Positions 9,177-60,476 of a stretch of 64,000 nt of DNA are shown piece by piece. How positions within the stretch are numbered: position 1 is the first letter of the stretch; every line of letters starts with the position of its first letter. The DNA comes from Epinephelus fuscoguttatus (taxonomy: Eukaryota; Chordata; Actinopteri; Perciformes; Serranidae), in NCBI RefSeq assembly GCF_011397635.1, contig NC_064756.1, positions 21,816,907 to 21,880,906 of the forward strand. Direction: 5' to 3'. Below the pieces are notes generated by a model that made no database searches, was not told where the DNA came from, and was given only the letters and a program-made list of their open reading frames with translations. Made by a program: the position numbers and the translations under genes.

Positions 9177-9182
9177 TTTATT
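9177..9182 (-). terminator. Candidate polyadenylation signal of the ZP-C/mucin-like gene
   Basis: AATAAA on the minus strand, about 250 bases downstream of the stop codon. It is the first canonical hexamer I saw there. Cleavage position not verified. Confidence 0.5.
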
Positions 9183-9433
9183 TTCAGTGAATGATAATAG
9201 ACTGTCAATGGCTAAGAGTGAATTCAACTGCAACAGCTGTGTCACCTATGAGAGGAGGTGTGAATTGGATTGCACCTCATCATCTAGTCTGGCCTGTACC
9301 GGCTGATGCGACTGTCCGCCTCTGCTCTACGGTTAATACGATTGACTGCTCCACTGTCTGTTGACTAATGCAATTGTCGGCAGCTATTTTGGTGGGGACA
9401 TGATCAGTGTAATTGGCAGTGGATCCTCCTTGG

Positions 9434-9624
9434 TCACGGTAGGACCAGGTCACCTCCTCCTGGGTGCAGGCAGCCGCAGCAGGCTCGTGGCGGAGCTGCA
9501 GAGTGGAGCAGCCAGATTGCACGGCGACGGTAGGCCAGCCACACCAGCAGCAGCGTCACTGTGACAAGAGAGGAGCCAACCACCAGGCTGACGATGACCA
9601 GAACCAGGTCCAGCTCTGGGGGGT
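9434..9624 (-). CDS. ZP-C/mucin-like gene, exon 6 (transmembrane helix and tail)
   Basis: After a TTTCAG acceptor this exon encodes PPELD, then a 25-residue hydrophobic helix beginning LVLVIVSLVVGSS. The stop-transfer sequence YRRR and a tail with ACCGC and GGGDLVLP follow, then TGA. The positive charges on the C-terminal side and the N-terminal signal peptide predict type I topology. The tail cysteines could be palmitoylated (inference). Confidence 0.8.
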
Positions 9625-12600
9625 CTGAAAGTCAAACAGAGAAATCATCGGCCATGAGGCTGCAGCCATGACTTGTTTGTGCACTATTACAAAAGTGTGT
9701 TGTTTTGCACACTAGAGTATTGCTTCCCATGATAAACCCAAGGACACACAAAGAGACACTTACATGTCTCATCTCGTCACATGCTAAAGATAAATGGCAT
9801 GGTCATCGCTCATTTCCTGTCTTGCAGCATCTCCCGTGTGCGCTCTGTTATCTCAGATTGATTATTTGTGTTTTAAGGCACAGCAAATAATTACCTATCT
9901 CCTCCAAGGAGGTCGAATTCTTAACTTCTTTCAACATGGGACCGAAGGATATGCGATTCCTGAGATTGGTGACAACAGCCTCTGGATCCTCTGAGGGAAA
10001 TGCACTCCTCTGCTGGAGGCATTGCTATAAAAAGACAAGGGAAACGTGAGTGGCTAACAGGTGATTAACTGTTTTTGGAAGACGGATGGTGTTCCTGTTT
10101 ATCATCAGAAATAGCAAGGACAATGCACAGAAATAGTCGTTGAAATAATACCTCTATGATAAGTATGTCTAAACATTGTTTTCCTGTGTGGTATCCTTTT
10201 TATTTGTATAAAAGGGCAGCAGTGGAAACATCTATTTCAAACAAGGATCTAGAAGTAGGATCTCACTTGAAAGCAACACTCTTTCTTTTAATCTAAACGG
10301 GCCCACTCTGAGCTGGAGTAGTTCAAACACGGCAGTACACTTTTATTGTATAGCTTTTAATGTGTCAAGAAAAAATATGTAGCCTGACATCAAGTGCCAA
10401 GAAAGAAACACCATATCCAAGAGCAAAGGGGACAAATGATCAAAAGATGCACACAAAAGAAGTTGCACATTATGTGGAAGAACGTGAACACCAATGCAAA
10501 CACCTACTACGAATTTAAACTTACCATTACACACGGCAAAAACAGAGAGGCTTTACAATACAAGAAAACACAAGGAGACACTAGACACATCATAAGAGAG
10601 CTGTAGACGTGCTCCACAAAGGCAGACATCAAAATGAGTCTCCTGAGTTTACCCTCTGTTTCACCTCTGCCCTCTAACGGGTACTTGTCAGATGATTCAG
10701 TTTTCCCATTAAATCAGAGACCTTGTTCTCACAACAGCAGGAGACGGCGTCCTTTGCTGCTCTGCCAGTGTGTTCTATAACTTTGCAAAGACCTTATCTG
10801 ACCCTCGGAGTGCATAATGACATGACAGATGTTTTAGGTTGCGTGTCTTTGCCTGTCAGACTCAGTCTCAGTCACTCAGTATACTTGTCACATTTAGAAA
10901 GCGGTCCTGCACCTATGGCAGGATCTTTCAATCACACAACACCCTTCCCTTTCACTTGTAATTCTTGCTCGCAAATAATCCTTCCTCTCCTAGTTTTCCT
11001 ATCATATTCAGCCATGTCCTCATTTACCTTCTCCCCAGTCCCTCACTCACCTTGGTCTCCCTTCTTGCTCCTCTCCCCAGCTCATTTACATCAGCCTGCT
11101 CGCTCCTCATCTGCCTCCCTGTTTTCACAGTGTCACACCCCGTGTCACTAAATTTAAATCACTCTCAGCCGCTCATTCTCTCATGCTCTCGCATTTATTA
11201 CACCCACTGCAGTCTTACCCTTTCACAGTCAGAGCGGTTTCTCAGGCAGACACTGAGATCACAGTGTAGGTACACTACTGAGTAATTAATCATTTGGAAG
11301 AGACTGATGGTGAAGCTGGCACTGGTTGACAGGGCACTGGGCAGCAGCGTGATCCCCGCTGGCTCTGCTGCTAACCTGAGGCACCAAAAAGAACACACAG
11401 TATAACCTTAGCACAGTCATGTTTGCCTTGAAAGAAATAGTGAAATTTCTAAGCAAAAATGGTAAAACTGAGACTATCCTGTAGGAGAAAAAAGTCTCCA
11501 TACAGTACAGCTGCCTAAAGCCGTTAAAGCTGTATTCATCAATAACAACGACAACAGGGAAAAAAGTAGCGTGCCATTAATCTCTTATATTGAATTGAGT
11601 TGGAGGCTTAAGAGAAAGAAGTCATGTTAGGTAAAGGTCAGCTTTTATTTAATGTTGCTGTCAGATTAGTATCATTGCTCACTGTGCATAATGTAAAGGA
11701 TCATCATCGAGAATCTATTCACCAGTATGCTGATGTTCTGCCAGTTTACTTTTACGATTTCAGGGTGACGTTGAGCGTTTTCTCGTCTCTTTCATTCCAC
11801 CTCACAGACATACATATTAAAAAGATTTGTCCCAGGTGTTCCCACCTTTTAAACAAGTGTTGTGTTCAGATACACAGTAAAACTCAAACAGCCAGCCTTT
11901 TCACAGTCTGATATATTTTAGAGGTTGTGCGTTTACACTGCTCCCTCTCTGAGTGTGCAGGACCGTGCTGAATTTCTATCTATCAGAGTGATGCTGGCTC
12001 GGAGAGATAACGCCATCAACCTTTGGCAGTCGTCTGTTTACTGAGCAGAGAGTATTCAGCTTTTAAAAATGAATCTGCAACTCACTGGATTGATATGAAT
12101 TACAACAACTGTTTCTCTAGTAAATACGTTTGTGAGCAATGGCAGTTGAGCCAGGATGTGTTAAGGCTTTTATGGAGGTTGAAAAGTTGCATTATTCATG
12201 GATGTCTTTCTAATATATGTTTAGAAAAAGCAAAAGTCAGGTTGCGACTATTTATTTTGAGAACCTCAGTCCCATTTCTACCATATAAGGCTGCATATGA
12301 AATAAAAAGCCTACAATAAAAGACTGAGTGCTTGCATTTCTTTTCATGATATGCAGTCCAGATGGCTGCTCATAAATCAGTAAATGTACTGTAAATTTCC
12401 CACTGTGTACATCCTGTAGTTGCTGCCTCTGCTCATCTATATTTAGTTTTTATAGTACACATTTTCTGAACTGCTCTTTCTCCTATTACTTTGCCTGAAT
12501 TAAGCCTTTCACACACTGAAATGAACAACACAGCAAACTCTACCCCTCTTAACATGAAAAAGAAAACCTCTTACCAGTCACTTTATTTCATACTTTCTTG

Positions 12601-15600
12601 TGTACCTGGAGAAAAGGCAGCAGGTGGAGTTGATGAGGTCAGGCTTAGTGGTCGGGGACAAGCAACAGGAGGTGACCCCGAGGTTTATCCGACTGTTATT
12701 TGTCTTCAGGTTGATAACCACTCTGAGGTTCCCCAGGGCAGGCACAGCATCACCAGGCTCTACACCTCTTCCCAGGTTCAGACTCATCTCTGCTGTGTAG
12801 TTCCCACTGCCACACAGGTCATCTGAAACTTCTGTTACACTGGCAATGGCGATTTGTAAAGGGAAACTGAGTGATAAAACCATTCTAGTAATTTTACTAC
12901 AAATTGCACATGTTATATAACTGCTGGCAAGAACATGTTTCAGTCAAATTTTAAAGTTCTGAGATTGATTTCATATCTCCCAGGCAGCAATTTGTTTCCA
13001 TCTATTTTGCTGTGCAGCAAAAATCAACTGTAATTTGCTAGAGACTCTTAATCCATCACGGTAAACAATTTCACTGCTTGCATCTTTTGTCAAGGTTGAG
13101 CAGGTACTGTTTTGAAAACTGCCTTCCTATTCAGTCTTGGTGCATTTGAGGACGCTCTGACATCTGACAATAAAGAATAGCTGCCAAACATCATATCCAA
13201 AGTAAACAGTCGGCTCTGTGAGGCTGCACATATGCACAGTGGTGCTTTGAGCTAAATGCTAATGTCGGCATGCTAACATTTTCTAATTAGTAATAACACA
13301 AAGTACACTTGGGGCTGATGGGGATGTTATTCATTTTTGGAGGTCTTTAGTCTTTAGTCATGACCAAAGTCCCATATTTTTCGACTGTGTGTCACCTCAT
13401 CCGTGTTTGCTTATTGTCTCTCTTCTAGGATTGATCCTCCAGCACCATATCTCATAACTGCAATGCTTTGCAGACTCCAAAAAATTGGATTTTGGAGTGG
13501 CCTAAATGCATCATCAGGAAGCATTTTCAGAACTGTACCTGCTCATAACTGCATTACCATGTGACAATATTAATTTAGGGAAAGTATAAAGCAGTTCTCT
13601 CTGATGGATTATCTACTTAATAGCATAACTCATGCCAAATCACCAGCATGCTTCTTTAATTTAATGCATGATTAATAGATAACGCTAGAATAATAGGGTT
13701 ATACAATAAGATTACCCAGAGAGATACAGATGAGGTGAGGTCCGTCTCCTGTGTTTCAGCAGCTCTGACTCAGACTGTGGCTCCAGCAGTAACAGCCTGC
13801 GCCCCGACTCCTGTACTGCCACAGCACGTGCTGACCTGGTGGCATTTTGTGCCTCGAATATCTCAGCTTTGGCTGCTCCTCTATTTAATTGAGTTTTTAT
13901 ATGTTTTTCAGCAAGCAGTATCCGCTCAGTTGTCTTTTCTGTGGTCTGCACAGTAGTTGGTGCAGGTTCAGATAGTGTGACCTCTGTTGCCACTGCCTCC
14001 TGGGCTTTAGAGGTCTGTCTGTGAGGGTGTGTTGTTTTTTCTACAATCTGAGCCTGCTCAAGTTCCTCATGTCTCTCTAAATGATCCGTTTCTGTTCTTG
14101 TTGAAGTTTCATTTGTCATACTCTTGGCATTTTGTGGCGTACTCTCATCAACAGTGGCGTGGTCATCAGATTTACTGGTGGCTGGTGAAAGAGCTGCATA
14201 GTCGTGGTAGATGGCCTGTGGTGTGGCTTCTTCAGGTACACGGCAGTCAGTGCCACAGCTGCCATTTCCTAGTTTTGTGACAGGAGCGTGTGCCGCATTA
14301 AAACGATCTCCCTCTGTGTTTCCGGCCTTCGTTTTATACATTTTCTCTAGAGCGGTATGATCAATCTCGCCTGCTCCAATTGTTGTTTCACTTGTCACGC
14401 CTGAGTTAGCGCAGCCAGTTCTCCTACAGCTGGTTTTATTCTCTCTAGGTGTGATCCCTGTGGGTTTTGCAGAATCAGTCACAGCCCAAAGTATTCTTTG
14501 ACTTATTGAGGTCTTTTCAGGTAATGCATGCAGCTCTTGTTGTTCTCCTCTGACCAGTACTGTAGGAGTCTTCTCATGTGGAGGGTGTTCAGCTTCAGAA
14601 GCGCTCTTTGTTGTCAATGCTTTGATCTCATCAAATGGTGAAGATTCAAATTTTTCAGCCAAAGTAGATGTTGTGTTATATATCCCTCCATCTCTGTGGG
14701 CAGCTTTTAACAAACCTGTTTGGATGCTCTGTGCCGGGTCCTTGATAGCACGTGTTATTGCAATCATACCAGGTTGGGCATGCTGGCTCGGTTCTATTGC
14801 TCTTACAGAAATTTCACGCTCTGTTGTGTTTCTTCTTTTCACAGCAGGCATGAGTTTGCCAGTATTGCCGGTTATGAGAGGCTCCCTCAGGGGCAAAGGC
14901 CCAATATAACTATTGGGCTGTACCATAAGGTCAGTATGTGCAACCTGAGATGATCTCTCAATAACAACTTGCACACTCTTAGGAATAGTCTGTGCTGATT
15001 CATGAACTTCTCTGGAGACAATAAGACTGCTTACGCTGGCAGTTGGTCCAAGTGACACAAAATCATTGGTTTTAGTTGTGGTTATTTGAATTTCGGAAGT
15101 AACATTCATTATGTGGTCAGCAATCTGCTGTGTGGTTATAATAGGGACCTTAAGGTCATTTTCAGAATGGATTTGTGGAAGAGAGACAGCGCTGTTACCT
15201 GCAGTGTCTTGTGGTGTGGAGGGATCATGCTGCTTTTCAATTGTTTTTGCTGTGTGATGCTCTATATCAGAAATAGCATTGTTAGTCACATCATTAGCCT
15301 GAATTTGGGGTATTTCTGGCAGACTATCTGACTCGACAAATGCAGTGGTGCCAGTTGGATCATTTGTGTCAAGCACAGGGACAGCAGAATCATTTGTAAC
15401 AGACCAAAAATCCTCATTTATTGCCTCCTCCATCTTGTGGGTGGTCTGAATTGCAAGCATGATAAGCTGAGCACTTGTTTTTTTATAACCTCCTAACTGA
15501 GAATGATTACTGTCAAGGGTAGCTTTCACTGTCTTGTTTGAAACATCATTGCCATCTACACTGAACAGGTCATTGTGTTTGTCCTCATTAGTGCTTAATA

Positions 15601-18600
15601 CTGCAAGTTTCTCAGCAGACAAAGAGTTGAATCCCTCAGTGTTACTAGCATAGCGTTCACCCTTGCCAGTGGTTTGTTCTTTTAAAGGGAACCCGCTCAT
15701 TTCATCTCTGCTCTCTGACATTTGCTTTGTGACTACATATGAATGTTTTACTCCCGAGGTCACCATATTTTGCATGCTGCCATTCTCAGTTTGATTTGTC
15801 TCCTCAGCAGTTCCTAACAAGATCTCAGCATGGCCACTTTCACTATTTGCATATCCTGCATCGGAGTTGGCCCTCAGTATCTCTTTGTCAGAGGCTGATC
15901 TTGTTAGTCCTGTCAGGGTATAGGTGCCAGGTAAACTGTCATCTCCAAACAGCATGAGATTTGGCAGCAGTGACATGCTGCTGAGAGGAAATTGATTGTT
16001 CTCCGCTTTAGGGCTCATCGATGCCATTAGGGTCTGCACAGATCTCTGCTCGTTATCATCAACAGGACCATGCAAAGCATCTGAGTGGGCTGTCTGCGCT
16101 GACAGTTTAAATGAGCGTGGCTGGCCTGAAGTCATGCCAAAGGCGGAGGAGGCGGGCTGATTTGTCTGAGGGGCAGATTGCCTTTGGTGAGGCAGGTCTA
16201 TGGAGGTGTGGGCCACAGATGATAAGGCTTTGGCTGTGGGTGGCTTGGCAGATGAGTCATTATACATCCGCTGGGTTGGTGTGGAATTCATTGAAGTGGA
16301 TGTATTTACTTTCTCAATCATCACAGAGGTTAAAGGGTCCTTGACATTGGATTCAGATACACGTGCTGGCATAATGTATACACGCTCGCTCTCATTCAGA
16401 TTCTGTAAAAGTGAATTTGCCTCTGAATCCAAAGTACTGAATTTATTCCTATGATCTGAGATGCTGTAAAGAATTGATAGACTGAGAGTAGAGCTATTTA
16501 CTGTAATGTGGGGCTTGGCTCTGAGGAGCTCTGCCGTGATTGCCAATCGTGGGGTGGTGGGTGGCAGCATATTACTTTTTAGTACAGTTGATTTAGATGC
16601 ACTGCTGTGCAGGGAACTTGTCGGCTTCAGTGCATCGCTGATCTTTGAGGTGCTAATTCCAAACACCAGAGAGAGTTTTGGGGCCAGTTTTGGTATGGCA
16701 GTCACAGAAAATGGAGCCTCAACAACTTTGACCTGAGTACTTCCTTTGGTAAGTGAAGACGTAGGGCTGTGCTTTGTAAACATATGGGTGGACAGTTTAA
16801 TCCGTGTGCTTGTCTCTTTGGGGAAAGATGTCACTCTTGATAGTTTCGGGCTTTGAGATCTCAGAGTTGAGTGCAGTGGTCTGTGATTGCTTGTCACTTT
16901 GTAGGAAAATGGCTTATTTTTCATTTCCACAATTTGTGCAACATGTTCACTGGGATGAATGCCATTGTGTTCAGGGACTCTCAACTGTTTAATCAAACTA
17001 TGGCAAGAAGACAGGTTTGCAACAGTGTGCCCTTTGTCTCTCATAAGATCTTTCGAATTAGTAGTAGGTCCAAGGGGAACATTTGTCATGTCCTCTCTCC
17101 CAGTTTCCCTGTTACATTTGGTGTCTTGCTTGCTTGCTGCTTCCTGTCTTCTAGCCTCTGCTCCCTCTTTTGTCAAAGGCGCTCTCTGCTTCTCAGCTAG
17201 ATCCTCTGTGAAATTCTTTGTATTTTTTTTAGTCACACCTTTTCCAGCACCTTCCTCATCTCTAACTTCCCCATGTCTTGCATGTTTCTCTTGTCTCAAA
17301 GTTATATCTTCCTCTCCTATGGTCCCTCCACCTCCCTCTCTACTTGTTTCGGCCTCATGCACTTCCATTTTAACCTCCTCCCGCTCTCTGTTTTGATTTA
17401 TCTCTGCGCCAGTGCTAATTATTTTTTCTTGTTTTCCACTCTCCATCTTATCTGATCTAAATAGTTCTTCTCTTTTGTTCCCCAACTTTTCATTATCCCT
17501 GCTCTCGCCTTCGTCCTGCAACTTTACTATCTCTTCTGTCTCTTTAATTTCTTCACCTTGCTCGCCCTCCAACTTGATTATCTTTTTGTCCTCATCTTCT
17601 GCAACTACCATCAACACCTGATCATTTTTATCTCCTGGCTTCAGATTGTGGACTATTAGTGAATCTCTGCTATATTTTAGAAAAGACTGGCGTGTCGGTG
17701 CCACATTGATATCATTGCTAACATCAAACAATCTCTCCTGAGTGATTTTTGATTGACTTCCTGAAAGTCTGCTCGCTGTCATTCTCTCAAAGAATGTCTT
17801 GCTTGATATTGTTGTCAGAGTTGAAGTGGACACGTCATCATCCAAGTCTTGTTTTGATTCAGAAAGAAACAACTTCACAGGCACAACAACTTTTGTCATT
17901 GTCAAGGTTGGAGTTTGTGGTTCCTTCACAACTGGTTCACTCGCTGGCCCTGAGGGATCAACAAAGTACTGTTTAACAATGCTGTTTACACTGTTAACTG
18001 TCTGAGAATCCTGCTCATCTGTCAGGTGTCTCTTTGTTGTTACAGATGTAAACTTGATGCCAGAATCCTTTAGTAACAAAGTCAATATGGGGTCTTTGGT
18101 CTTGGAGCTTTGTTGAGCTGGCGTTTGGCTCTTCAACACAGTGAACAATGAATCACCCCTTCCTGTCAGAGAGTGAGACTCCGGATTTTTGACTTCAGAA
18201 GTGGTTGGCCTACTAAGACTGAAGGATGCTGTTGTGCTACGAGCTTCAATCAACCTCATTCTTGCAGTTGGATGTGATGCAGTGCTGTGATCACTACCTT
18301 CTGGAAAAACACTTTTCTGACTGCTGTGTGGAGCTTCAGTGACGTCAGCTGGTTTGCCTACTGACCCGCTTTTGAAGTCCAAAGGTTTGTTTTGGACAAA
18401 TGCAGTTTTGAAGTTTGTTGAGAGACTGTGGGAAGTGTTGTTATGCTTACTGAAATGTGTCAGTTTTGACTGTGGGTCCCAGATGCTCACCTTTTTTCTG
18501 AACGTTTCTTGTTTCCCCAGAGTATAGTCTGACTTTGATGAGCGATAAAACTCTGCGGTTGTTGAAATCAGCCTCAATTGTTTCAAGGTGTTTTGTTGTG

Positions 18601-21224
18601 TTGCTGATGGCATCTCAGCAAGAGATAATGTGTCAAACGCATCTGTTTCAGTATCTGAGAGAAAAGATTTGATTTGGGAGTTATTGAAAATGTTTTGACC
18701 ATGATTCACAGTTTTATTGGGGGGTGAAGGGAGAAAAGTCAGGTTGTAAACTGGTTGTTCCCTCACTTCAGAACTGAAGTGCTTGGTAATGCTTTTCTGA
18801 ATGATGTCTTTGTTCAGCATTTCTTCTTGTTGTTCTCCTACCGACTGCTGATGTAAACTGGGTAATGAGGTTGTAAATTGACTGAAATCGAAAGTGAGCC
18901 CCTCTATACGAGGAGAGTCTGAGGAGCCATCAGGTGACAGTGCAGGCAGAGTCACAGATTTCTCAGTGGACACTTCTCTTCGATCTCTCTGGCAGGTCAA
19001 ACACAAGTTTGTCACAGTGTTTCCTCTCACTGAATCTTCTGCTGTATTGCTTTGGAAAATGGATTGCACAGTACTGAGCGGATACCCGTTTCTATCCAGG
19101 TTTGAAATCCCCTTATTATCCTTGTCTTGAGATCGTTTGTCATCATTGTTATTACGCAGCACAGCCAGGTTATCAATTACACGAGGATGAGATGCAGATA
19201 GGATTGGAACTCCCGGCCCTCTGTCAGCAGATGTGAGAGTAATAGAGTCAGTGTTTCTCTGATTCCTGTTATCAAGCAGAGTGTGAAGCCAAAGGGACGC
19301 TTTCACTGCATCTGTGGACAAATAGACCCCTGGCTCGAAGGTCCCATTCATCTTTGATTCAAATGCAGCTCGTGTAGAAGAGTAAACGATTTTGTCATAA
19401 TCAGAAATCAATGGGGGTTCTGATTCATTGTGAAACCTCGTGGCTGATGGATTATCTCGTGTTGATGTGAGAGAGGTTTGCCCATTTCTGGAAACAAAAC
19501 TGCTCACTGAGCCAAATATATCTGATGCTTTTGTGATTTGTGTTCTCTCATATGATGGCGTTGGTCTGGTGTCAAACAAGACCGCCTCTGGAAACTTGGC
19601 AGCCACTGCCACTGCAGTGTGATGATGTGTATTCTCTGTAGGTACTGCTTCTATGCCCTGACCAATTGTGTTTTCCTCTTTCAAAAGCAGATCTTTTGTG
19701 ACAGTTGTGCCTTTTGTTTGTTCTGCGTGGTAACCTTGAAAATCTTCTTTTTCTGCCTGGACTACAAAGAAAAAACATCATGTCACTCAGATTTCTTCCC
19801 CACAAGCTGTCCTTTCCAAAATGATCATGTAGCATAGAGCACAACTGAGATTCATTAGATCCATGCTGCACTGTCACATTTACTACATTTCAAGAGTTCA
19901 TTCAAATTAAAATTCTGCACTATTTCAGATATTTACTCACATTAGTCACAGTATTATAAAAGGATTGCCAGATTGCTCTTGCTGTTTGCTGTATTGCAAG
20001 ACTGAGAATGTGGGGGATGGGAGGTTATTATCCCAAATAAACAGTTTATCAGGAGGTCAATTAAAATTCAACACAAATAAGAGTCAGGTTACTCCACAAA
20101 CTCACATTAAAGAGACCGGATGCATTTCTAACACTGTTGTGGTGATGGAAGGGAGCAGTCTTGCCGGCACTTAATTTGTGCTCATCTCTGTCAGTGATTG
20201 TGGAAACTTGGAAAGAGCGTTGTTAGCTGATAAATTAGGATGCTTACTAATTAGGCACTATTTTTAGATGTCTGTATTTGCATCAAGCATTTCAGCCACA
20301 GTACAAAAAGTACAGTCTATTTGCAGATAGGAGTAACAATATGATGGAGACAAAAAATAGTTATCAGTGCTGGTTGTTATTTATTTGTACCAAATATAAC
20401 GCACCCCCAGACTCAACATGTGCTGTTGGGGGGCGGAAGCACAGTAATTCAGTGATGCACCAATAATCAATGTTGTATTTGCATAAACATTTTGCAAATG
20501 TTCCCTGTAATGTCTCTGACAGTCAGTTAAACGCAAGCAAAATTGATGCTTTACATTCAAGCCTCCACAGGGTTCCTGTAATAATTTGAACCCTGTTGTG
20601 GCAGATACAAAGTCGAGGGGGGAAAGTTAATGATGTTGACACCCCTTAGTGTGTGACTGATGGCTGAGATATAAAATGTTTAAGTCAGATGTTTTTACGG
20701 TTTCGGTTTGCCACTTAAATGAATCTGCGAAGGTGATTTCACGTCTCATCATGTCAGTTATCACTTTAGATGATGACAACACCTGTAATGTACAGGATAT
20801 TAAAACATAAAAGAAATGATCAAAGACAGCGTGGTAGGCAAAAGAAACCAATTATAATAACAGAGCAGTATGCGGTTAGTTTTTTCTTTATGTTACATAC
20901 TAAAGAGACAAGGTAGTAGTCTGCCACACTGGGAAGAAGACTTAGATTTACTCTGTCACTTAGTGGAGCTGTTTATTTCTGTTCTTTTGACATCACACAA
21001 AATTAGTAGAAATTTGTTGGAAATATTTCTGCTTGCATGCCTTACTTTTGAAGTGAACATGATAGCTATTAAACTATTTTAACTTTAAGATGCAAGTGAA
21101 AAAGAAATCAAAGAGAATTCAGAAAAATGTCCTCAGCACTTTGTGTCACTGCAGATAAATACAACATTTATCTGCAGGGTTGTGTACTTCATAACAGACT
21201 GAGAAATATTAAAAAATTCCAGAA

Positions 21225-21287
<63 letters not shown>

Positions 21288-21401
21288 ATGTGAATCAAAT
21301 ATTTACCAGTAGTGTGCTGTACCTAAAACAATAAACACAAAAAATGAGCACATACCTGAAAGCAGGAAAAATCCTACTGTGAAACAGTAAAGCCTCCCCA
21401 T
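9434..21401 (-). CDS. Large mucin-like, ZP-C-domain single-pass membrane protein (2267 aa, six exons)
   Basis: Exons in transcription order are 21401-21356, 19761-13716, 12839-12606, 11375-11219, 10024-9895 and 9624-9434. Every junction has GT-AG ends and the phases close (6804 coding bases including the stop). Residues 1-18, MGRLYCFTVGFFLLSVQA, form a signal peptide. Residues about 19-2031 are a Ser/Thr/Asn-rich, Cys-poor ectodomain with many N-glycosylation sequons and a Glu/Lys-rich island (about 733-906). Residues 2032-2204 are a ZP-C module with the expected paired cysteines (VTSCC, STCC, HCDLSVC, DCERQC) and an ISFGPML patch near its end. Residues 2211-2235 form a transmembrane helix, followed by YRRR and a 30-residue tail with ACCGC. 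ZP-C modules mediate polymerisation or ligand binding in uromodulin-, endoglin- and betaglycan-like proteins. No ZP-N half was seen. Function is unknown; a cell-surface or matrix mucin is the inference. I do not recognise a named orthologue. Confidence 0.85.
9895..12839 (-). CDS. ZP-C/mucin-like gene, exons 3-5 (ZP-C module)
   Basis: Exon 3 (12839-12606) carries GSGNYTAEMSLNLG through GVTSCCLSPTTKPDLINSTC, matching the start and first cysteines of ZP-C modules (YxLIxxxC pattern). Exon 4 (11375-11219) carries FTISLFQMINYSVVYLHCDL and SVC. Exon 5 (10024-9895) starts QCLQQ and ends with ISFGPML, equivalent to the external hydrophobic patch / cleavage region of ZP proteins. Introns between them are 1.2 kb each, with no gene inside. 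The phases (2, 0, 1) match across all joints. Confidence 0.8.
13716..19761 (-). CDS. ZP-C/mucin-like gene, exon 2 (6046-base mucin-like exon)
   Basis: One uninterrupted frame of about 2015 codons runs from a TTTGTAG acceptor to a GG|GTAATC donor; without splicing it would hit TAA at once. Composition is dominated by Ser, Thr, Asn, Glu and Lys. No clear tandem repeat unit is visible, unlike classical tandem-repeat mucins. Rare cysteines come in close pairs (CLTC, SCRRTGC, SCGTDC). A basic KHRRR at about residues 2018-2022, just before the ZP-C module, could be a proprotein-convertase site. Open frames on the opposite strand over this exon are shadows. Confidence 0.85.
19762..21355 (-). other. 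Intron 1 of the ZP-C/mucin-like gene
   Basis: The intron has a GTATG donor and a TTTGTAG acceptor. It contains an ATCT microsatellite and otherwise nothing recognisable. Confidence 0.7.
21225..21287. repeat. (ATCT)n microsatellite
   Basis: About fifteen perfect tetranucleotide units inside intron 1 of the ZP-C gene. Confidence 0.95.
21356..21401 (-). CDS. ZP-C/mucin-like gene, exon 1 (signal peptide)
   Basis: ATG at 21401-21399 opens fifteen codons plus one base, ending at a GTATG donor. The hydrophobic run YCFTVGFFLLS is completed by exon 2 as VQA before the predicted signal-peptidase site. This start was chosen because it is the only upstream ATG that supplies a signal peptide in phase with the 6-kb exon. 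Confidence 0.8.
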
Positions 21402-28149: not shown

Positions 28150-28640
28150 TATTGCTCTCGATTTACCGGTCGATCTAGGTTCCAACCCTCACCTATGGTC
28201 ACAAGCTCTGGGTAGTGACCGAAAGAACGAGATCCCAAGTACAAGCGGCCGAAATGAGTTTCCTCCGCAGGGTGGCTGGGCTCAGCCTAAGGGATAAGGT
28301 GAGGAGCTCGGACATCCTGGAGGGACTTGGAGTAGAGCCGCTGCTCCTCCACATCGAGAAGAGCCAGTTGAGGTGGTTCAGGCATCTGGTAAGGATGCCT
28401 TCCGGACACCTCCCTTGGGAGGTGTTTCGGGCATGTCCAACCGGGAGGAGACCTCGGGGCCGCCCCAGGACACGCTGGAGGGACTACATCACCCGGCTGG
28501 CCTGGGAACGCCTCGGGGTTCCCGTGGATGAGCTGACGGAAGTGGCTGGGGAGAGGACTGTCTGGGCTTCTTTGCTGAGGCTGCTGCCCCCGCGACCCGG
28601 GCCCAAATAAGCGGAGGACGACAAGTACGAGTACTAGTAC
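28150..28640 (+). mobile_element. 3' fragment of a non-LTR retrotransposon, copy 1
   Basis: The frame 28215-28610 encodes the C-terminus of a LINE reverse-transcriptase protein: TERTRSQVQAAEMSFLRRVA, then SQLRWFRHLVRMPSGHLP, RGRPRTRWRDYI and a terminal LLRLLPPRPGPK. Upstream sequence continues the homology in another frame (frameshifted near 28200). A diverged second copy lies at 43005-43580. The RTE/Rex3-like assignment is tentative. Confidence 0.75.
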
Positions 28641-56227: not shown

Positions 56228-59223
56228 CTAGGGGCTGGTACAGGGCAAGCCTGAGCCAGCCCTAACTATAAGCTTTATCAAAGAGGAAAGTCTTAAGTCT
56301 AGTCTTAAATGTGAAGACGGTGTCTGCCTCCCGGACCGTAACAGGAAGATGATTCCACAGGAGAGGAGCCTGATAGCTGAAGGCTCTGGCTCCTGATCTA
56401 CTTTTGGAGACTTTGGGGACCACAAGTAACCCTGCGTTCTCAGAGCGCAGTGTTCTGGTGGGATAATATGGCACTATGAGCTCTCTAAGATATGACGGAG
56501 CTTGACCATTTAGAGCTTTATAAGTTAACAGTAGGATTTTAAATTCAATTCTGGATTTTACATGGAGCCAGTGCAGAGAAGCTAAAACAGGAGAAATATG
56601 ATCTCGTTTCTTAGTTCCTGTTAGTACACGTGCTGCTGCATTCTGAATTAGCTGGAGAGTTTTAAGGACTTACTAGAGCTACCTGATAATAGAGAGTTAC
56701 AGTAATCCAGCCTTGAGGTAACAAAAGCGTGGACCAATTTTTCTGCATCTTTTCGGGTCAGGATAGGCCTAATTTTCGCAATATTACGCAGATGAAAAAA
56801 TGCAGTCCGTGAGGTTTGTTTTAAATGAGAATTAAAAGACAAATCTTGATCAAATATTACTCCGAGGTTTCTTACGGTAGTGCTAGAGGCCAGAGCAATG
56901 CCATCTAGAGAAACTATGTCATCAGATAAAGAGTCTCTGAGTTGTTTGGGGCCAAGAACAATAACTTCAGTTTTGTCTGAATTTAACATCAGGAAATTGG
57001 TGCTCATCCAGGTTTTTATGTCTTTAAGGCAGTTATGGAGTTTAGTTAATTGATTACTTTCTTCTGGCTTCATCGATAAATACAACTGTATATCATCCGC
57101 ATAACAATGGAAATTTATAGAGTGATTTCTAATGATGTTACCAAAAGGAAGCATATATAGAGTAAATAGGATTGGTCCGAGCACAGAACCTTGCAGAACT
57201 CCAAAACAAACTTTGGTACGTAAGGACGATTCATTATGAACGTGAACAAACTGAAAACGATCAGATAAATAAGATTTAAACCAGCTCAGTGCAGAACCTT
57301 TTAGGCCAATTAAGTGATCCAGTCTCTGCAGTAGAATTTGATGGTCAATTGTGTCAAACGTCGCACTAAGATCTAATAAAACAAGTACAGAGACAAGTCC
57401 TTTGTCTGAAGCAATCAGAAGGTCATTTGTAATTTTAACTAGTGCTGTCTCAGTGCTATGATGCACTCTAAATCCTGACTGAAATTCCTCAAATAGATTA
57501 TTATCATGGAGAAAATCACACAGCTGGTCTGCGACTACTTTCTCAAGGATCTTTGACATAAAGGGAAGATTAGATATTGGTCTATAGTTGGCTAACACCT
57601 CTGGATCCAGGGTGGGCTTTTTTAGTAGAGGTTTAATTACAGCTACCTTAAAAGACTGTGGTACATAGCCTGTTAATAAGGATATATTGATCATATCTAA
57701 TATATGAGTGTTAACTAAAGGAAAGACCTCCTTAAGTAGCCTAGTTGGGATGGGGTCTAAGAGACACGTTGATGATTTAGATGAAGAAATCAATGCAGTC
57801 AATTCTTGAAGAGAAACTGGGGAGAAGCAATCTAAATATATATTTTTACAGCTGTGTTTGAGGTTTGATAGGTACTATCTGAGGACAGGAGGTCATGAAT
57901 TTTGCCTCTAATAGTTAGAATTTTGTCATTAAAAAGCTCATAAAATCATTACTGCTAAGGGCTAAAGGAATACAAGGCTCAATAGAGCTTTGACTCTCAG
58001 TCAGCCTGGCTACAGTGCTGAAAAGAAACCTGGGGTTGTTCTTATTGTCTTCTATTAATGCTGAGTAATAGTTTGCTCTGGCATTGCAGAGGCCCCTCTT
58101 ATAAGTTTTGAGACTGTCTGTCCAGATTAAGCAGAGATTCTTCCAGTTTGGTTAATGTAATTCCTTTTCAAAATTTTCGCGATATTTGTTTTAACTTACG
58201 GGTTTGAGAGTTATACCAAGGAGCGAACTTTCTTTGCTTTTTTAACTTCTTTTTAAGAGGAGCTACAGAGTCAAGTGTTGTTCGCAGCGAGCCTACAGCG
58301 CTATCGACAAAATGATCAAAGTCGGTACAGGAAACCTCTGTTACTGAGGGACTTGGTATTGAATTTAATGACGGAGTAATCTTTTCCTTAAATTTTGCGA
58401 CAGCACTATCTGATAAACATCTAGTATAGTAACTGTTGCTGAGTGGCGGTAATCGAGTAAAAGAAATCAAAAGTAATGAGATAATGATCCGATAGGGATT
58501 CTGTGGAAAGACTTTTAGATTATCAATTTCAATTCCATACGTCAGAACTAGATCGAGGGTATGGTTAAAACAGTGAGTGGGTTCATGTACACCCTGACTG
58601 AAGCCAATGGAGTCTAATACTGAGATAAACGCGGTAGCCAGGGAGTCATTATCAACATCGACATGAATGTTAAAATCGCCTACAATAACTTTATCTGATT
58701 TAAGAACTAAACTGGATAAAAACTCTGAGAATTCAGATACACATTCAGAATACGGCCCAGGAGCACGGTACACTATAAACAATAAAAGTGGCGTCTAGGT
58801 TTTCCTGGTCGGATGTAAAAGACTAAGAACGAGGCTTTCAAATGAATTATAATCTAGTTTAGGTTTAGGGCTGATTAACAGACTAGAGTTAAAAATGGCT
58901 GCAACTCCCCCTCCTCGGCCGCTGCCTCGAGGAATGTGGGTATTATTATGACTGGGAGGAGTGGACTCATTTAGACTGACATATTTATCTGGACACAGCC
59001 AGGTTTCAGTGAGACTGAGTAAATCAATATGATTATCTGATATTAATTCGTTTACTAACACTGCTTTAGACGATAGAGACCTGATATTTAACAGTCCGCG
59101 TTTAATTCTCCTGTTTTGTCTTTCTGTCACAGAAGAGGTTTTAATTTTTATGAGGTTGTTATGCACAACTCCTCTTTGTTTAATTTTAGATTTAAATAAT
59201 TTAGGTGGTCGGGGGACAGACAC
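56228..59223 (-). pseudogene. LINE ORF2 (endonuclease + reverse transcriptase), frame-disrupted
   Basis: Four open pieces are visible. 59223-58795 holds the apurinic-type endonuclease start (GLLNIRSL, LTETWL). 58782-58168 holds YRAPG, VGDFNIH and HTLDLVLT. 57802-56648 is the reverse transcriptase with NYRPISNLPF, LDLSATFDTIDH, LQGSVLGPILF, the YADD catalytic box and NSDKTEVIVLG. 56474-56228 is the C-terminal region with NHLPVTVREAD. Breaks near 58790, between 58168 and 57802, and near 56648 prevent one continuous product. Confidence 0.8.
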
Positions 59224-59325
59224 CGTTTGTATAAAACTATGAAAACTATGGCTGGGTAACTGAACTAGAAGCTCAGAGAGGCGTATAGGACTGCGAATCT
59301 GAGTCCTGGTCTCAACTCTGGGTTG

Positions 59326-60198
59326 TCAGGGATTTAAATTACTAATAAAGTTTGCCAGGTTCCTAGAAATGAGAGCAGCTCCATCCAAAGTGGGATGAAT
59401 GCCGTCTCTCCTAATAAGACCAGGTTTTCCCCAGAAAGTTTGCCAATTATTAATGAAACCCACATCGTTTGCTGGACACCACCTGGACAGCCAGCGATTA
59501 AATGATGACATGCGGCTAAACATGTTATCACTGGTCAGATTTGGGAGGGGTCCAGAGAAAACTACAGAGTCCGACATCGTTTTTGCATATTCACACACTG
59601 AGGCAATATTAATTTTAGTGACCTCGAATTGGCGTAACCGGGTGTCATTGACGCCGACGTGAATAACAATCTTACTGAATCTACGTTTAGCTTTAGCCAG
59701 CAGTTTTAAGTTAGATTCAATGTCGCCCGCTCTGGCCCCAGGGATACATTTGACTATGGCCGCTGGTGTTGCTAACTTCACGTTTCTCAGAATAGAGCTG
59801 CCAATAACCAGAGTTTTATCCTCAGCGGGTGTGTCGCTGAGTGGGGAAAAGCGGTTGGAAACGTGAACAGGCTGGTGGTGAGCCGTGGGCTTCGGCTTGG
59901 AGCTGTGCTTCTGGCGAACCGTACCCCAACCTCCCGGCTGAACGGGAGTTACCGGAGGACAGTTAGCAGAGGCTAAGGCTATGCTATGTGGCTCCGCACC
60001 GGCTACAGGGGGCTGGCTAACTACCGCAGCTACTGAATGGTTTTCCATGGTGCGGAGCCGCGCTTCTAATTCACTAAGCCTCGCCTCCAACGCAGCAAAT
60101 AAGCTACACTTGTTACAATTACCACTGTCGCTAAAGGAGGCAGAGGCATAACTGAACATTTGGCACACCGAGCAAGAAAGAGCAGAGGGAGAAGCCAT
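59326..60198 (-). CDS. LINE ORF1, SGNH-esterase type, intact (290 aa)
   Basis: The ATG at 60198 was chosen because the frame upstream has only a TTG. Residues about 8-33 hold CSVC ... CNKC, a zinc-finger-like Cys pattern. A short coiled coil ([18 protein letters not shown]) follows. Then comes a GDSL/SGNH-like esterase domain with block I VIGSSIL, block III GVND and block V DGIHP, so Ser, Gly/Asn and Asp/His catalytic-type residues are present. Esterase-bearing ORF1 proteins are known from CR1/L2 elements and are thought to act in ribonucleoprotein or membrane association. Confidence 0.8.
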
Positions 60199-60476
60199 CG
60201 CTAACTTTAAAGCTAATGTGGCTACCAAGGCTAGTAACGTGCAAACAACAGCTAAGAGATTAGCGAGAAAGTCGTAGAAAGGAGAGCTATAAGTGCTTAA
60301 ACAGAACTAGTGTGGGTTAAGACTTGAAGTAGACTTGAACACATCCCATTTCCGTTCAATAAGTATTTAAGCACACCTCATCCGTTTCCTACTCCTCTGA
60401 CTCAGTTTCCACATCTCCCCCCCCCCCAAGCCCCCTTTCTTTTTTGTTTTCTTTTCTCTCTTTTGTGTTATTACAG

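What the first reader, a model, noticed from the sequence alone, without database searches (positions are those of the whole stretch)
9434..21401. Apparently undescribed giant mucin-like protein with a ZP-C module and transmembrane anchor
Six exons join with GT-AG ends and matching phases into a 2267-residue protein: signal peptide, ~2000-residue Ser/Thr-rich ectodomain, ZP-C module, transmembrane helix, short Cys-containing tail. ZP-C alone without a recognisable ZP-N half is rare (betaglycan-like proteins are the known comparison). I know no named vertebrate gene that combines it with such an ectodomain. It could be a surface mucin, a filament-forming matrix protein or a decoy/co-receptor; the function is inference.
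Basis: partly seen in the sequence, partly recalled or inferred. Interest (0 to 1): 0.85.

Follow-up and report, generated by a model that had tools for sequence, protein, structure and literature searches.

The report
Giant fish surface glycoprotein with ZP-C
A fish gene, lying among the genes of a well-known cluster around the dopamine D2 receptor, appears to encode a very long, mostly unstructured cell-surface protein that ends in half of a 'zona pellucida' module next to its membrane anchor; no description of it was found, and its job is unknown.

Summary
The six-exon minus-strand gene model is in the sequence as described: GT-AG borders, compatible phases, 2267 residues, signal peptide, one 6,046-bp exon, ZP-C (Pfam E=4e-8), transmembrane helix, short Cys-bearing tail. 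No RNA evidence was available. Two readings change. (1) 'Mucin-like' is too strong: the ectodomain is 22% Ser+Thr and 5% Pro, without repeats or Pfam match; 50 of 1,915 windows reach 40% Pro+Thr+Ser. (2) It is probably not a betaglycan or TGFBR3L gene. This genome holds tgfbr3 and a TGFBR3L-like gene elsewhere, both with the ZP-C core in one exon. Our gene has the exon split seen in 15 of 23 other ZP places examined and keeps the hydrophobic-patch motif of ordinary ZP genes, but lacks a detectable ZP-N, the furin site and Cys6. A sequence tree leans weakly the other way. It lies between TTC12 and ANKK1 exons, inside the NTAD cluster. Best reading: a single-pass, non-polymerising surface glycoprotein whose ZP-C is a membrane-proximal binding module, derived from an ordinary ZP gene that lost ZP-N. 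An in-frame start before exon 3 leaves a short ZP-C-only product possible. Function is inference; a new variant of a known kind.

The parts
21356..21401 (-). Exon 1: start codon and most of the signal peptide (MGRLYCFTVGFFLLS...)
   Evidence: GT donor; Kozak-like context GAAATGG; signal peptide read by eye
13716..19761 (-). Exon 2, 6,046 bp: end of signal peptide and ~2014-residue Ser/Thr-rich ectodomain; 26 NxS/T sequons; no repeats; no Pfam match
12606..12839 (-). Exon 3: first part of ZP-C (GSGN..AEMSL, Cys5 = first Cys of SCCLSP)
   Evidence: border phase 2 and 'GSGN..A.MSL' shared with ZP gene L008; Cys5 by alignment
11219..11375 (-). Exon 4: middle of ZP-C (VYLHCDLSVC); starts at the canonical Cys6 position, here Leu
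9895..10024 (-). Exon 5: FG loop and external hydrophobic patch motif (ISFGPM); no furin-type site
9434..9624 (-). Exon 6: transmembrane helix (about 9545-9613) and ~31-residue tail with CCGC; stop
9177..9182 (-). AATAAA polyadenylation signal candidate
12840..12883 (-). In-frame ATG and signal-peptide-like stretch (MVLSLSFPLQIAIAS) directly upstream of exon 3; possible alternative start of a ~251-residue ZP-C-only product, or a by-product of the splice acceptor tract
   Evidence: no profile or RNA support

Best explanation
A gene for a type I membrane glycoprotein. Shown by sequence: signal peptide, ~2000-residue Ser/Thr-rich ectodomain with 26 N-glycosylation sequons, ZP-C with the external hydrophobic patch motif kept but no detectable ZP-N, no furin-type site and Leu at the Cys6 position, one membrane helix, short tail. 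Inferred: it descends from an ordinary (uromodulin/tectorin-type) ZP gene that lost ZP-N and gained or grew the giant exon. Because the usual polymerising half (ZP-N) and the release site are absent, the ZP-C probably stays sealed and membrane-tethered and works as a membrane-proximal protein-binding or dimerising module, at the base of a long, largely disordered, glycosylated stalk that keeps other surfaces at a distance or displays glycans. What it binds is unknown; a TGF-beta-family co-receptor role like that of betaglycan/TGFBR3L is one option.
For: Gene model and features. ZP-C similarity to solved GP2, betaglycan and uromodulin, best five at E 4.2e-6 to 8.5e-5. No ZP-N: no Pfam match in 2014 residues of exon 2 at E<=1; a single-sequence AlphaFold2 model of its last 337 residues has mean pLDDT 46, no strands and one long helix. 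The only R.[KR]R is at residue 274. Patch-like ISFGPM against LLSYGPI, VSYGPI, LTIGPI in three canonical genes. Exon split: 15 of 23 distinct own-genome places with the [HQ]C motif have a phase-2 AG exactly before Cys6; the window gene has it too. The border phase of the first ZP-C exon matches the one gene compared (L008). Standalone ZP-C by loss of ZP-N is known in nematodes (PMC7456536, passages); ZPc of LET-653 acts without ZPn, and endoglin and betaglycan ZPc are suggested to dimerise (PMC7665627, passages).
Against: No RNA or protein evidence; exon 2 could be a separate transcript, and an in-frame ATG with a signal-like stretch precedes exon 3. The tree joins the gene to betaglycan (78/75, not significant; long branch 2.31) and the FG loop is nearer betaglycan's length (27 against 28 residues; 21-25 in three canonical genes, counted on the rows). 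Intron layout can change by loss. 8 of 23 places lack the phase-2 acceptor, and the phase-0 and phase-1 borders are shared with betaglycan, so only one border separates the two classes clearly. The 23 places are a part of the 75 Pfam matches plus later hits. Charge-hydropathy puts only 41 of 77 ectodomain windows on the disordered side. Orthologues could not be searched.
Confidence: 0.45

Rival explanations
1. It belongs to the betaglycan/TGFBR3L branch: a co-receptor that captures a TGF-beta-family ligand with ZP-C and hands it to signalling receptors.
For: ZP-C, membrane anchor, short tail, no furin-type site; FG loop length 27 against 28 in fish betaglycan (counted on the rows); tree joins it with betaglycan at 78/75, unstarred.
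Against: tgfbr3 (C10, 58% to mouse) and a TGFBR3L-like gene (C19, 38% over 47 residues, E=0.003) are separate loci. Both hold Cys5 to Cys8 in one exon with a phase-0 start, read by eye; the window gene has the phase-2 split. The GP of the patch motif is kept here, changed in betaglycan. Residues whose mutation abolished TGF-beta2 binding of betaglycan ZP-C (N82, A158, I161; PMC11865472 section 8) read here as Ser or Arg (by alignment), Pro and Val, but this fish's tgfbr3 also lacks N82, so the test is inconclusive.
Confidence: 0.2
2. An apical-matrix protein: ZP-C alone is incorporated into an extracellular matrix, as ZPc of C. elegans LET-653 is, with the giant stalk as filler.
For: LET-653 functions via ZPc (PMC7665627, passages); canonical exon split and patch motif; a ZP-C exon of tectorin type (label recalled) lies about 82 kb away on the same strand.
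Against: No furin-type site between ZP-C and the membrane helix, so release would need another protease; LET-653 has such a site and its cleavage promotes function.
Confidence: 0.2
3. Two products: exons 1-2 are one transcript, and exons 3-6 are another (or a short isoform) that starts in intron 2 and gives a ~251-residue, TGFBR3L-like ZP-C membrane protein.
For: An in-frame ATG (A at -3, G at +4) and MVLSLSFPLQIAIAS, which looks like a signal peptide, run straight into exon 3. Exon 2 and exons 3-5 differ in GC3 (0.39 against 0.58-0.61). No transcript data.
Against: A pyrimidine-rich acceptor tract codes for Phe/Ser/Leu/Pro anyway. Exon 2 ends with a donor in matching phase 2, the phase at which the first ZP-C exon of L008 starts. 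No promoter was looked for.
Confidence: 0.15

Closest known systems
TGFBR3L (inhibin B co-receptor)
   Same: Membrane-anchored protein whose recognisable domain is ZP-C (PMC7795056 and PMC11865472 passages; domain limits recalled)
   Different: 316 residues predicted; a TGFBR3L-like gene is a separate locus here (C19) with a one-exon ZP-C core; no 2000-residue stalk; window gene has the phase-2 split and the GP of the patch
Betaglycan (TGFBR3)
   Same: Anchored ZP-C without polymerisation; similar FG loop length
   Different: Betaglycan has an orphan domain and ZP-N; different exon layout; separate locus on C10
Uromodulin / GP2 / tectorin type ZP modules
   Same: Phase-2 split before Cys6; patch motif of the LSYGPI kind; LHC, Cys5, Cys7, Cys8, CysA, CysB positions
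   Different: No ZP-N found, no furin-type site, Cys6 replaced by Leu, nine Cys in the ZP-C exons, giant stalk
Nematode standalone ZP-C proteins (T01D1.8, F46G11.6, CUTL-19)
   Same: ZP-C without ZP-N; changed Cys patterns occur among nematode ZP-C domains (PMC7456536 passages)
   Different: Another phylum, independent origin likely; no such stalk in the passages seen
Membrane mucins
   Same: Long Ser/Thr-rich ectodomain, signal peptide, anchor
   Different: Ser+Thr 22%, Pro 5%, no tandem repeats, no Pfam domain such as SEA or EGF

Membership tests
ZP-C domain (PF00100) | Match over the curated score | tested here: met
   33.8 bits against 24.6, E=4.2e-8, profile 34-130 of 133
ZP-C domain (PF00100) | Cys5-Cys7, Cys6-Cys8, CysA-CysB | tested here: inconclusive
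   Cys5 (2089), 7, 8, A, B positions present; Cys6 position is Leu; extra Cys at 2040, 2090, 2104, 2105 could substitute; pairing not testable
Polymerising ZP module | ZP-N upstream of ZP-C | tested here: not met
   No Pfam match in exon 2; no strand in the AF2 model of its last 337 residues, low confidence; intronic look-alike without profile support
Polymerising ZP module | Furin-type site between ZP-C and anchor | tested here: not met
   Only R.[KR]R is at residue 274
Polymerising ZP module | External hydrophobic patch | tested here: met
   ISFGPM aligned with LLSYGPI, VSYGPI, LTIGPI; motif level only
Canonical ZP gene lineage (uromodulin/tectorin type) | Phase-2 intron directly before the Cys6 position | tested here: met
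   15 of 23 other places examined have it, 8 do not
Betaglycan/TGFBR3L | ZP-C core (Cys5-Cys8) in one exon starting in phase 0 | tested here: not met
   Fish tgfbr3 L020 and TGFBR3L-like L049 have it, read by eye; the window gene is split
Betaglycan/TGFBR3L | Phylogenetic grouping | tested here: inconclusive
   78/75 unstarred, long branches meet
Betaglycan/TGFBR3L | Binds inhibin or TGF-beta | not testable with these tools
   Needs a binding assay
Mucin | Dense PTS domain, usually in tandem repeats | tested here: not met
   50 of 1,915 100-residue windows at 40% PTS or more; BLASTP against itself gives only the full self-match

The most novel reading that the evidence does not exclude
A vertebrate standalone ZP-C protein of non-betaglycan ancestry: a canonical ZP gene inside the NTAD (NCAM1-TTC12-ANKK1-DRD2) cluster lost ZP-N, furin site and Cys6 and became a giant membrane-tethered glycoprotein, parallel to the nematode standalone ZP-C proteins, and is not among the genes by which the cluster is described.
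Probability: 0.38. Interest if true: 0.6.

Novelty: new variant of a known kind. Interest (0 to 1): 0.45.

Why it matters
ZP-C is usually treated as the regulator of ZP-N polymerisation; proteins that keep only ZP-C test what it does alone. A vertebrate case besides TGFBR3L, of separate origin, would be a natural experiment. The gene also sits between TTC12 and ANKK1 exons, in a cluster said to be conserved among vertebrates and studied for addiction (PMC8861280, passages; PMC7177674, start of abstract in the listing), so fish work on ankk1 and drd2 should know that a giant surface-protein gene lies there.

Tried and rejected
Orthology with TGFBR3L was an early idea; set aside after a separate TGFBR3L-like locus with another exon layout was found. 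The name 'TGFBR3L-like' for that locus rests on 38% identity to mouse betaglycan over 47 residues and on recall of the human sequence.

A missing ZP-N exon was looked for. An intronic 51-codon open frame at 12974-13126 (minus) resembles the end of ZP-N by eye (C.T...IVYRDGL), but neither Pfam nor the PDB chains support it and no good donor was seen; rejected as chance or at most an unproven relic.

A tree of 17 ZP-C rows did not resolve the gene's place; 7 of the 17 rows fill under half of the kept columns. A search of viral contigs for relatives found none, as expected. Betaglycan binding residues were compared but this fish's betaglycan itself lacks one of them, so no conclusion. A search of the own genome for other copies of exon 2 was asked for thirteen times (and, with no loci asked for, 104, 107, 109, 112) and never answered, so whether the stalk has paralogues is unknown. 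An earlier form failed on its frame.

Full report
What is there. The introns are GT-AG, phases fit, and the product has 2267 residues. Exon 2 alone is 6,046 bp and open throughout; 200 Markov copies of it never gave an open run over 230 codons. An AATAAA lies about 250 bases past the stop. No transcript data were available.

Anatomy. Residues 1 to about 18 form a signal peptide (read by eye, spanning exons 1 and 2). The exon-2 ectodomain is 11.7% Ser, 10.5% Thr, 5.3% Pro, with 26 N-glycosylation sequons where about 21 are expected from composition, a highly charged stretch around residues 700-900, no internal repeats, and 50 of 1,915 windows of 100 residues at or above 40% Pro+Thr+Ser. 41 of 77 windows lie on the disordered side of the charge-hydropathy line, so disorder is likely but not uniform. 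Pfam finds nothing in it at E<=1. A single-sequence AlphaFold2 model of its last 337 residues has mean pLDDT 46, no strands, and one long helix with block means of 71 to 92; without an alignment this is weak evidence. Then come ZP-C, a hydrophobic helix of about 23 residues and a tail of about 31 residues with CCGC. The ZP-C exons hold nine cysteines, the tail three.

The ZP-C. Against solved chains the best single-sequence matches are GP2 (4.2e-6), betaglycan (3.6e-5) and uromodulin (6.7e-5), which does not tell them apart. In an alignment with three own-genome ZP genes and two betaglycans, Cys5 (2089), Cys7, Cys8 and the A/B pair are recognisable, the external hydrophobic patch reads ISFGPM where the canonical genes have LLSYGPI, VSYGPI or LTIGPI, and no furin-type site follows. 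The naming of the cysteines follows PMC7456536 (passages); their placement is partly recalled.

Exon layout. In this genome I compared places that carry the [HQ]C motif of ZP-C. Of 50 loci held, 13 flanks and pieces of the gene itself were left out; of the 37 scanned, 24 gave a match and 13 none, plus the window gene. Two of the 24 are the same betaglycan place, leaving 23 distinct. In 15 of 23 an AG in phase 2 stands directly before Cys6; in 8 it does not (L001, where the open frame runs through; L002-L007, not further identified; betaglycan L020). 12 of the 15 also have a phase-0 GT[AG] 19-23 codons after the motif start. The window gene has both, with Leu instead of Cys6 at the exon start. 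The phase-0 border exists in betaglycan too (22 codons), and so does the phase-1 border after the patch, read in L008 and L029, so only the phase-2 split separates the classes. The border before the first ZP-C exon (phase 2) was compared in one gene, L008, and matches, with a shared GSGN..A.MSL. In betaglycan (L020) and in a TGFBR3L-like gene (L049) Cys5 to Cys8 lie in one exon that starts in phase 0. All borders were read as GT/AG, without transcripts. By layout the gene sides with canonical ZP genes. The protein tree leans the other way (78/75 with betaglycan, not significant, long branches), as does FG loop length (27 residues here, 28 in fish betaglycan, 21-25 in three canonical genes; counted on the rows). 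I give more weight to the layout but not certainty.

Copies. A search of the own genome with the ZP-C part gave 16 matches at E<=10: four are pieces of the gene itself; the other twelve have E 0.006 or weaker and 23-38% identity, and include canonical ZP genes and betaglycan. No close paralogue was found; the tool scores only the best candidates. The same search with exon 2 did not complete.

A possible second start. Directly upstream of exon 3, in frame, lies ATG with A at -3 and G at +4, followed by VLSLSFPLQIAIAS. This looks like a signal peptide and would give a ~251-residue ZP-C membrane protein. It may be a by-product of the acceptor tract. I cannot decide without RNA.

Place. Flanking DNA was fetched. 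Below the window, on the same strand, lie a kinase exon and an ankyrin exon (ANKK1 by architecture), then on the other strand a dopamine D2 receptor exon (PDB match 8e-24). Above the gene lie exons named TTC12 by recall, with weak HEAT matches below the cut-off. The gene thus sits between TTC12 and ANKK1 of the NTAD cluster, which papers describe as conserved among vertebrates (PMC8861280 passages; PMC5900934 passages). The passages seen mention no gene between them; a paper on the cluster's history (PMC3571431) is not held. NCAM1 was not searched for; I noticed no such exon in the list of long open frames, which would miss short exons.

Literature. Nine answered full-text searches brought no description of such a protein in a vertebrate; I saw listings and, for the papers cited, passages, one section or the start of an abstract. 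That does not exclude an automatic 'uncharacterised protein' entry in sequence databases, which could not be searched here.

Mechanism. Shown: anatomy, no ZP-N found, no furin-type site, kept patch motif, layout. Inferred: the ZP-C is not used for polymerisation, because ZP-N is the usual polymerising half and cleavage the usual trigger (PMC7665627 passages); it remains as a folded, membrane-proximal module for binding or dimerisation, as suggested for betaglycan and endoglin, under a long glycosylated stalk. An odd number of cysteines in ZP-C would leave one free for an intermolecular bond; this is speculation.

Verdict. An intact-looking and apparently undescribed gene; a new variant of a known kind. 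It is less mucin-like and, by layout, less betaglycan-like than first thought. Interest is moderate, limited by the lack of expression data and of orthologues.

Noticed in passing
window 12840-12883, minus strand: In-frame ATG plus signal-peptide-like stretch just upstream of exon 3; possible alternative start for a short ZP-C protein.
   Followed up: partly
L049 (G000:C19:35762500-35763900): A betaglycan-like ZP-C exon (RFSFILRPVYNDSMQFLHCSLRLC) with a long acidic insert; probably fish tgfbr3l.
   Followed up: partly
window 12974-13126, minus strand: Intronic 51-codon open frame that by eye resembles the end of a ZP-N domain, upstream of the first ZP-C exon; no profile support.
   Followed up: yes
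window 9283-9555, minus strand: Another frame of exon 6 stays open well past the stop of the model, so a one-base assembly error or alternative splicing could give a longer tail.
   Followed up: no
window 56265-60306, minus strand: Open frames that look like a LINE (reverse transcriptase and endonuclease), by recall.
   Followed up: no
window 28179-28607: Open frame resembling a retroelement fragment; a similar one lies at about -14 kb.
   Followed up: no
L012, about window coordinate 103,500, minus strand: A ZP-C exon of tectorin type (label recalled) about 82 kb from this gene on the same strand.
   Followed up: partly
window 21225-21287: Perfect (ATCT)n microsatellite of 63 bases in intron 1.
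   Followed up: no
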